64,000 nt of DNA from NCBI GenBank assembly GCA_019244395.1, contig JAFASQ010000352.1:1-64000 (forward strand), given 5' to 3'. The notes beneath the pieces were generated by a model, which searched no databases, was not told the DNA's origin, and saw only the letters and a list, made by a program, of their open reading frames with translations. A program made the translations under genes and the position numbers. Of the stretch, positions 50,251 through 52,674 are shown piece after piece. Source of the DNA: Solirubrobacterales bacterium. Its GTDB lineage: Bacteria > Actinomycetota > Thermoleophilia > Solirubrobacterales > Solirubrobacteraceae. How positions within the stretch are numbered: the stretch's first letter is position 1; every line of letters begins with the position of its first letter.

Positions 50251-50316
50251 GGATTGATCAGACCCCGGGAACCCGGGTGATCGATCAGAACCCGGGTGAT
50301 TGATCAGAACCCGGGT
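50251..50316. repeat. ~19-20 bp palindromic tandem repeat (TGATYGATCAGAACCCGGG)
   Basis: TTGATCAGACCCCGGGAACCCGGGTGATCGATCAGAACCCGGGTGATTGATCAGAACCCGGG. Confidence 0.85.
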
Positions 50317-50433
50317 AAGGCGACACTCGCCCGGCCGCACGGGCCGAATTCATATTCACCGGGGGAGACCCGAGACACGCAGCCGGCCGATGCGGTCGGG
50401 AAACGGCGCCCCGTCAGACGCGTCGGCAGGGCG

Positions 50434-50769: not shown

Positions 50770-50901
50770 CCACGAGTCCGACGAGGCTGCCGAGCGGTTG
50801 AAGCCGCTTGCATCCGATTCCGGCGGTAGTACGATCTGACACTCGTCTCGGCGCCTCGAGCGACCAGCGATGCCCGCACTACCTAGGCCGGAGGTTCTCG
50901 T

Positions 50902-51234
50902 ATGGCAGATCTCTCGCGGTACTTGGATAACGCTTACGAGGGAAACGAGTTCCGCGAACTCGCCGATTCACCCGTGGACGCGCTCGAGGGCGTATCGGTC
51001 GGGGACGCCGAGCAGCTTCAGGCCGCGTTCAATATCCGGACGATCCGTGACCTGGCTGAGAGCAAGTACGTGCGAAGGGCGGCAACCCGGCAACGGTCGA
51101 GCAACAGGTCACCCAGGTCAACGATGCGGTCGGCTCGATCGGCACCCAGTCAGCAAGTTCCGGGCAACCCATACCGAGACGGTTCCGTCTCACCTATAAC
51201 CAAGCAAACGGAGGTCAGTTATGACAGAGAGTGA
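50902..51234 (+). CDS. Hypothetical protein with HhH-like segment (3' half may be frameshifted)
   Basis: SPVDALEGVSVGDAEQLQAAFNIRTIRDLAESKYVRRA; SD GGAGG upstream. Confidence 0.55.
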   Translation: MADLSRYLDNAYEGNEFRELADSPVDALEGVSVGDAEQLQAAFNIRTIRDLAESKYVRRAATRQRSSNRSPRSTMRSARSAPSQQVPGNPYRDGSVSPITKQTEVSYDRE

Positions 51235-51622
51235 GCAGTACGGTAGCGAGTCCGGCGGCCCCGGCCAGGAGTCCGGCGGCGGGTATGGCCAGGAGCCCGG
51301 CGGCGGCTACGGCCAGGAATCGGGCGGTGGTTACGGTCAGGAATCCGGTGGTCAGGAATCCGAAGGCTACGGCCAGCAATCGGGCGGCCGTCGCGAGGAG
51401 GAAGAGGAGGGCGGCGGCTACGGCCAGCAATCAGGCGGCCGCGAGCGGGAGTCCGAGGAAGGTCAGGGCGGCTACGGCCAGGAGTCCGGCGGCGGTTACG
51501 GCCAGGAATCGGGCGGCGGTTACGGCCAGGAATCGGGCGGCGGTTATGGCCGGGAGTCCGAAAACGACCCCGGCTCGGGCGGCTCCGGCGGTTCGTCGTT
51601 CGACGATCCCGCGCGTCAATAA
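51221..51622 (+). CDS. GYGQ[E/Q]S-repeat low-complexity protein
   Basis: ATG with SD GGAGG; 133 aa with 8 GYGQ + 1 GYGR repeats, Gly/Ser/Gln/Glu/Tyr-dominated. Confidence 0.75.
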   Translation: MTESEQYGSESGGPGQESGGGYGQEPGGGYGQESGGGYGQESGGQESEGYGQQSGGRREEEEEGGGYGQQSGGRERESEEGQGGYGQESGGGYGQESGGGYGQESGGGYGRESENDPGSGGSGGSSFDDPARQ

Positions 51623-51772
51623 GCAGACACCCATCGACCGATCCAAGGCGGCCGGCGCCGGGGCGGGCGCTGGCCGCCAGCGGATGAGCGCAGCTCGAAT
51701 GTGACATTAGCTGCCATCGCGAAAACCATGTCACCGTTTCTACTGTCAGCGCCAGGGTAGGATTTACGTTCG

Positions 51773-52141
51773 GTGTTAGACTTCGTGTTGAGGCCTGCTC
51801 GTTCGATCATCCGGGTGCTGAACGAGGACGCGCTCAAACCCCTCGAAGAGACCGAACGAGAGACCCTGGACGCGGTCAAGGCGGTAGATCGCGTGACCGG
51901 GTCGATCGAGCACCACGTCGAGGTGATCGAGACCCTCGCTACCTCAGTCGGTCCATTGACCGAATCTGTCGACCGGCTGAACGAAACGATGCGCGACCTT
52001 GTGAAGATGCTCGCGCCTCTCGCCACGGCCGAGCGCGAGGTTGCGCACACCGAGCAGCGACTTGAGCAAGCCGAGCACTTCCTCGGCTTCCGGCGCCACA
52101 AGAAGCCGGCTGAATCGGAATCCACCCCGCCAGAGAATTAG
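51773..52141 (+). CDS. Hypothetical coiled-coil protein
   Basis: Heptad-rich ETERETLDAVKAVDRVTGSIEHHVEVIETLATSVGPLTESVDRLNETMRDLVKML; TAGGAT 9 nt before GTG. Confidence 0.7.
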   Translation: MLDFVLRPARSIIRVLNEDALKPLEETERETLDAVKAVDRVTGSIEHHVEVIETLATSVGPLTESVDRLNETMRDLVKMLAPLATAEREVAHTEQRLEQAEHFLGFRRHKKPAESESTPPEN

Positions 52142-52284: not shown

Positions 52285-52674
52285 GTGGGGCGCTATGAAA
52301 TCCTGCGCGCGATCGGTCGGGGCGGGATGGCGATCGTCTACGCCGCCCGTCAACCGGACCTCGACGGCCAGGTCGCGCTCAAGGAGCTGAGCCGCTTCCA
52401 CGCGAACTCGGCGGAGTTCGCCCATCGCTTCCTTCGCGAGTCGCGCGTCGCGGGTTATCTGAACCACCCGAACATCGTCACCGTGCACGAGTACTTTGAT
52501 CACGGCGGCACGCCGTACATCGCAATGGAGCTTGTGGCACGCGGGTTCCTGCGTCCCTATATCAAACGGCTCTCACTCGCGCAGATCGCCGGCGTGCTCG
52601 AGGGCATCCTCGCTGCGCCTGCGCACGCCGAGACGGCCGGAATCGGTCAACGATCGATGATGCGGGCGCTCTAA
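52285..52674 (+). pseudogene. Truncated Ser/Thr protein kinase (N-lobe only)
   Basis: GRYEILRAIGRGGMAIVYAARQPDLDGQVALKELS...LNHPNIVTVHEYFDHGGTPYIAMELV; ends before HRD/DFG catalytic loop. Confidence 0.75.

What the first reader, a model, noticed from the sequence alone, without database searches (positions are those of the whole stretch)
51221..51622. Bacterial FUS/FET-like GYGQ low-complexity protein
133 aa dominated by [G]GYGQ[E/Q]SGG repeats (8 GYGQ, 1 GYGR), with an acidic centre (RREEEEEGG) and no hydrophobic core. Spaced tyrosines in G/S/Q context are the sticker pattern of FET-family prion-like domains that phase separate. Strong SD GGAGG and correct spacing support translation. Neighbours are small helical and coiled-coil hypotheticals, a truncated kinase and YihY, so a stress/condensate role is possible but speculative.
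Basis: partly seen in the sequence, partly recalled or inferred. Interest (0 to 1): 0.7.

Follow-up and report, generated by a model that had tools for sequence, protein, structure and literature searches.

The report
Acidic disordered GYGQ-repeat protein, Solirubrobacterales
A soil actinobacterium and one close relative make a small, unfolded, negatively charged protein built from GYGQESGG repeats; it is a real, selected gene and most resembles a water-stress protectant (hydrophilin), rather than a relative of the human FUS protein.

Summary
The ORF at 51221-51622 is exactly as described and is a real gene. An ortholog (113 aa, 84% identical over aligned residues) sits in the same neighbourhood in a second species of the genus (a Solirubrobacterales MAG). 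The two differ as proteins do: 25 of 43 substitutions are at third codon positions, dN/dS is 0.24, every indel is a multiple of three, and no other frame on either strand is conserved. The upstream block and a strong hairpin after the stop are also conserved. The family is tiny: 2 of 28 genus genomes and none of the other order, class or phylum genomes sampled. A scan of 84,980 species for the repeat pattern found 28 places. All but the ortholog are low-complexity parts of larger proteins (pseudouridine synthases, SSB, FhaA, membrane proteins). The protein is almost certainly fully disordered. It meets both numerical hydrophilin criteria (Gly 36.8%, hydrophilicity index 1.67). It does not meet FET-family criteria: fraction charged 0.24 and net charge -0.15 per residue, against 0.02-0.1 charged in prion-like domains, and no RNA-binding or RGG domain. 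Most likely it is a soluble hydrophilin-like protectant. Condensate formation is possible but unsupported.

The parts
51221..51622 (+). Gene for the 133-aa acidic Gly/Glu/Ser/Gln/Tyr-rich repeat protein (8 GYGQ, 1 GYGR)
   Evidence: coding shown by comparison with the ortholog L018:5574-5915(-)
51253..51560 (+). 24-bp (8-codon) tandem repeat array interrupted by the acidic segment RREEEEEGG; copy number differs in frame between the two species
   Evidence: (TRF)
51210..51214 (+). Shine-Dalgarno GGAGG, 6 nt before the ATG (GGAG, 8 nt before the ATG, in the ortholog)
   Evidence: for the ortholog
50788..50874 (+). Upstream block 85% identical to the block directly upstream of the ortholog; holds a promoter-like TTGCAT-16 nt-TACGAT at 50808-50835
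   Evidence: (blastn 74/87, E 3e-25); the stricter consensus scan did not list it, so promoter function is inferred
50875..51190 (+). Segment of about 315 bp, absent in the ortholog locus, carrying a small helical ORF (50902-51234) between the promoter-like block and the repeat gene; the ORF tail departs from its homolog after KYVR, so it may be degraded
51641..51685 (+). Strong RNA hairpin (13-bp stem 51647-51678) after the stop, a comparable one also present after the ortholog gene; likely 3' end or terminator of the transcript
   Evidence: (-37 kcal/mol, z -4.2)
51773..52141 (+). Neighbouring small helical or coiled-coil protein (122 aa), conserved more widely in the genus than the repeat protein

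Best explanation
It is a small, stand-alone, cytosolic, wholly disordered acidic protein of the hydrophilin type. Shown: it is a coding gene under purifying selection, built of in-frame 8-residue repeats, with conserved sequence upstream and a hairpin downstream, and extreme hydrophilicity. Inferred: it is made in quantity, stays soluble, and works as a flexible hydrated polyelectrolyte that keeps macromolecules apart and binds water and ions when the cell dries or meets high osmolarity. The regularly spaced tyrosines would give weak, reversible contacts with clients or with each other. Because function depends on composition and length rather than on a fold, repeat number can drift, as it does between the two species.
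For: Coding and selection: dN/dS 0.24, third-position excess, indels in multiples of three. Repeat units diverge mostly synonymously. Disorder: AlphaFold mean pLDDT 49, no helix or strand of length (only 2 sequences); charge-hydropathy value far on the disordered side (0.315 against boundary 0.467). Hydrophilin criteria of glycine above 6% and hydrophilicity index above 1 (PMC7448490) are exceeded in both species (36.8% and 1.67; 31.9% and 1.73). No signal peptide or transmembrane stretch is visible in the sequence. Own upstream block and hairpin are conserved.
Against: No expression, stress-induction or phenotype data. It lacks the lysine-rich amphipathic repeats of LEA group 3 proteins (general knowledge). 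The gene was found in only two species, which argues against a broadly needed protectant. Hydrophilin criteria are loose and would admit many disordered proteins. A stress-sigma-like motif nearby (51736-51759) belongs to the next gene and is not enriched genome-wide (26 matches against 24 in the control).
Confidence: 0.42

Rival explanations
1. Condensate scaffold: regularly spaced tyrosines act as stickers and the protein phase separates, homotypically or with basic partners, as FET low-complexity domains do.
For: GYG stickers about every 8 residues; tyrosines drive FUS phase separation (PMC8847598); the same GYGQ motif recurs in low-complexity segments of bacterial SSB and pseudouridine synthases, and E. 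coli SSB is known to form condensates (PMC12143593 abstract).
Against: Net charge -0.15 per residue and 24% charged residues, against 2-10% in prion-like domains; higher net charge lowers phase separation (PMC11820118). Few arginines, no RGG or RNA-binding domain. The ortholog keeps only 5 GYG[QRL] plus GFGE and has lost Tyr at several units, so sticker number is not strictly guarded.
Confidence: 0.2
2. A partner-specific linear-motif protein: the conserved ends (MTE.EQYGSES and GSGGSSFDDP.RQ) dock on a partner, perhaps the neighbouring coiled-coil protein, and the repeat is a flexible spacer.
For: Both ends are nearly identical between species while the middle varies in length; the gene neighbours the 122-aa helical protein in both species.
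Against: The helical protein occurs in 12 genus genomes, 10 of them without a detected repeat protein, and a strong hairpin separates the two genes.
Confidence: 0.15
3. A structural or surface gel component whose tyrosines are cross-linked, as in tyrosine-rich coat proteins.
For: Gly/Tyr-rich repeat composition.
Against: No secretion signal visible, no oxidase or secretion gene directly beside it, high negative charge.
Confidence: 0.07
4. A young lineage-specific gene born by tandem-repeat expansion with little present function.
For: Only 2 of 28 genus genomes have it; 24-bp tandem repeats.
Against: Purifying selection on the amino-acid sequence, conserved upstream block and hairpin.
Confidence: 0.13

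Closest known systems
Hydrophilins (Garay-Arroyo class; includes LEA proteins, yeast Hsp12, E. coli RMF)
   Same: Gly well above 6%, hydrophilicity index above 1, small, predicted disordered
   Different: No sequence homology detected; acidic with tyrosine repeats; stress induction and protection untested
FET-family prion-like domains (FUS, EWSR1, TAF15)
   Same: Spaced Tyr flanked by Gly/Ser/Gln, low complexity
   Different: More than twice the charge of any prion-like domain in the cited set, net acidic, shorter, no RRM, RGG or zinc finger; no sign of homology
Bacterial proteins with GYGQ-rich low-complexity segments: Bacteroidales S4/pseudouridine synthases, Rhodothermales SSB, actinobacterial FhaA, CD225-type membrane proteins
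   Same: GYGQ[QE]xGGGYGQ repeats
   Different: Those are segments of larger proteins with folded or membrane domains, basic or near neutral; this one stands alone and is acidic
Pfam PF03991 Prion_octapep
   Same: Gly-rich octapeptide register, weak profile match (27.1 bits)
   Different: Below curated cut-off 32; no His or Trp, so no metal-binding residues of that repeat

Membership tests
Hydrophilin | Glycine content above 6% | tested here: met
   36.8% and 31.9% in the two orthologs; criterion from PMC7448490
Hydrophilin | Hydrophilicity index above 1 | tested here: met
   GRAVY -1.67 and -1.73, taken as index 1.67 and 1.73
Hydrophilin | Disordered in solution | tested here: inconclusive
   Prediction only, and in favour: pLDDT 49, charge-hydropathy
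Hydrophilin | Accumulates or protects under water deficit | not testable with these tools
   needs proteomics and drying assays
FET-family prion-like domain | Repeated Tyr in G/S/Q context | tested here: met
   8 GYGQ, 1 GYGR, 1 QYGS
FET-family prion-like domain | Few charged residues (fraction 0.02-0.1) | tested here: not met
   0.24 and 0.31; range from PMC11820118
FET-family prion-like domain | Linked RNA-binding and RGG domains | tested here: not met
   no such domain in the 133 aa
FET-family prion-like domain | Phase separates | not testable with these tools
   needs purified protein
Pfam PF03991 octapeptide repeat | Score over curated cut-off | tested here: not met
   27.1 bits against 32
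Pfam PF03991 octapeptide repeat | Copper-binding His/Trp in the repeat | tested here: not met
   composition has no H or W

The most novel reading that the evidence does not exclude
A bacterium-specific, stand-alone acidic tyrosine-sticker protein that forms stress-triggered condensates with basic partners, arisen independently of eukaryotic FET domains and of the GYGQ-rich segments found in larger bacterial proteins.
Probability: 0.15. Interest if true: 0.6.

Novelty: new member of a known kind. Interest (0 to 1): 0.33.

Why it matters
It gives a clean, small natural repeat polymer in bacteria, with repeat number varying in frame between two species and evidence of purifying selection. It can test whether charge or tyrosine spacing sets the behaviour of such proteins, and whether they protect cells from drying. 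If it condenses despite its charge, it would be a useful minimal model.

Tried and rejected
Antisense coding: rejected; the antisense frames are either full of stops or not conserved. PF03991 match: below cut-off and compositional. PDB sequence search: only weak compositional matches, E 0.22 and above. NCBIfam and PHROGs: none for this protein. First genome-contig scan by protein gave nothing (low-complexity filtering may be the cause), so a DNA pattern was used instead. Viral contigs: 4 places, all longer near-neutral proteins, two of them nearly identical. A weak match in another family of the order (G228) lies in a 777-aa frame and was taken as compositional. A stress-sigma-like promoter near the next gene was dropped as support because the motif is not enriched genome-wide, although the genome does have SigB/F/G-type sigma factors. 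Diverged repeat proteins beside the helical gene in other genus genomes were sought and not found. A structure search was not run because the model is of low confidence.

Full report
Observation. Composition is Gly 36.8%, Glu 17.3%, Ser 13.5%, Gln 11.3%, Tyr 7.5%. GRAVY is -1.67, computed pI about 3.6, charge about -20 at pH 7. The DNA is a 24-bp tandem array with an interrupted centre.

Is it coding? Searches of the same genus found one ortholog, in genome G007. The pattern scan shows it as contig JAFAZZ010000397.1 of a Solirubrobacterales MAG. The ortholog is 113 aa and 84% identical over aligned residues. Over 113 aligned codons there are 43 nucleotide differences: 8, 10 and 25 at positions 1, 2 and 3. 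dN/dS is 0.24. A shuffle keeping substitution types gave 29.3 nonsynonymous differences on average against 20.5 observed, reached in 1 of 2000. All gaps are multiples of three. Four of the other five frames mostly change amino acids where the DNA differs, and the fifth (an antisense frame) carries 13 stops. The repeat units inside the window gene also differ mostly at third positions (88, against 22 and 8). So the protein sequence of the stated frame is kept by selection, which implies translation; no expression data were available.

Anatomy. Upstream, window 50788-50874 is 85% identical to the block just upstream of the ortholog. It contains TTGCAT-16-TACGAT at 50808-50835, a plausible promoter, though the consensus scan with stricter rules lists none. 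In the window genome a segment of about 315 bp with a small helical ORF lies between this block and the gene; it is missing from the ortholog locus, where the promoter-like element begins 97 nt before the ATG. A homolog of that small ORF exists elsewhere in another genus member, without a repeat gene beside it. After the stop is a strong hairpin (51641-51685, -37 kcal/mol, z -4.2) and a comparable one follows the ortholog. Downstream are the 122-aa helical protein, a truncated kinase, a 69-aa protein, YihY and a DAHP synthase. The ortholog locus has the same order without the kinase fragment. YihY is 92% and DAHP synthase 97% identical between the two genomes, so the repeat protein evolves faster than its folded neighbours, as disordered proteins do.

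Distribution. It was found in 2 of 28 genomes of the genus, in no other family member among 146, and with no convincing match among 232 of the order or 397 of the phylum. A pattern for two consecutive repeats found nothing else in 399 genomes of the class (the ortholog genome does not appear in the rows of that sample). Many genomes are incomplete, so absence is not certain in each case. The helical neighbour occurs in 12 genus genomes, and none of the related loci fetched apart from the ortholog has a comparable polar low-complexity ORF.

The repeat elsewhere. A pattern for GYGQ[EQDH]xGGGYGQ over one genome for each of 84,980 species gave 28 stretches. Reading the frames and Pfam on representatives, they are mainly Bacteroidales S4/pseudouridine synthases (basic low-complexity N-terminal part), with Rhodothermales SSB, actinobacterial FhaA and CD225-type or other membrane proteins. 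Only the ortholog itself is a short stand-alone ORF with net charge below -0.10 per residue. Four viral contigs have longer, near-neutral proteins.

What it works like. AlphaFold gives mean pLDDT 49 and no structure (two sequences only, so supportive rather than decisive). Charge-hydropathy places it deep in the disordered region. It exceeds both numerical hydrophilin criteria (PMC7448490). For FET-like prion-like domains the fraction of charged residues is 0.02-0.1 and higher net charge lowers phase separation (PMC11820118); here it is 0.24 with net -0.15. FET proteins also carry RNA-binding and RGG domains (PMC8847598), absent here. So a soluble acidic hydrophilin-like protectant is the best-supported reading, with condensate formation as a rival. 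Both functional statements are inferences.

Checks that did not help. The SigF/SigB-type motif GTTT-N15-GGGTA (consensus as in PMC4694148) occurs once in the window, at 51736-51759, just before the helical gene. Genome-wide it occurs 26 times against 24 for the reversed control, so it is not used as support, although the genome has three sigma factors over the SigBFG cut-off.

Verdict. A real, small, lineage-restricted disordered protein; a new member of a known kind; moderately interesting.

Noticed in passing
window 51736-51759: GTTT-N15-GGGTA, a SigF/SigB-type promoter match just upstream of the helical protein gene; the ortholog locus has GTTT-N15-CGGTA. Not enriched genome-wide.
   Followed up: partly
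window 51773-52141: 122-aa helical protein with a well conserved core (EHHVEVIETLATSVGPLT) in 12 genus genomes and 3 other family genomes; only weak coiled-coil matches in Pfam.
   Followed up: partly
window 52285-52674: Ser/Thr kinase fragment (N-terminal part only, PknB-like), absent from the ortholog locus; probably a degraded insertion.
   Followed up: partly
window 50902-51234: Small helical ORF, matching PHROG 36017 and homologous to a 70-aa ORF in another genus member; its tail appears frameshifted and overlaps the start of the repeat gene.
   Followed up: partly
window 50252-50325: Three near-identical 18-19 nt direct repeats (GATTGATCAGAACCCGGG) after the cupin gene.
   Followed up: no
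L039, L040, L042-L045, L047-L049 and similar loci: Many Bacteroidales pseudouridine synthases carry long basic GYGQQRGG low-complexity N-terminal parts, a natural set for studying bacterial RGG/Tyr-type regions.
   Followed up: no
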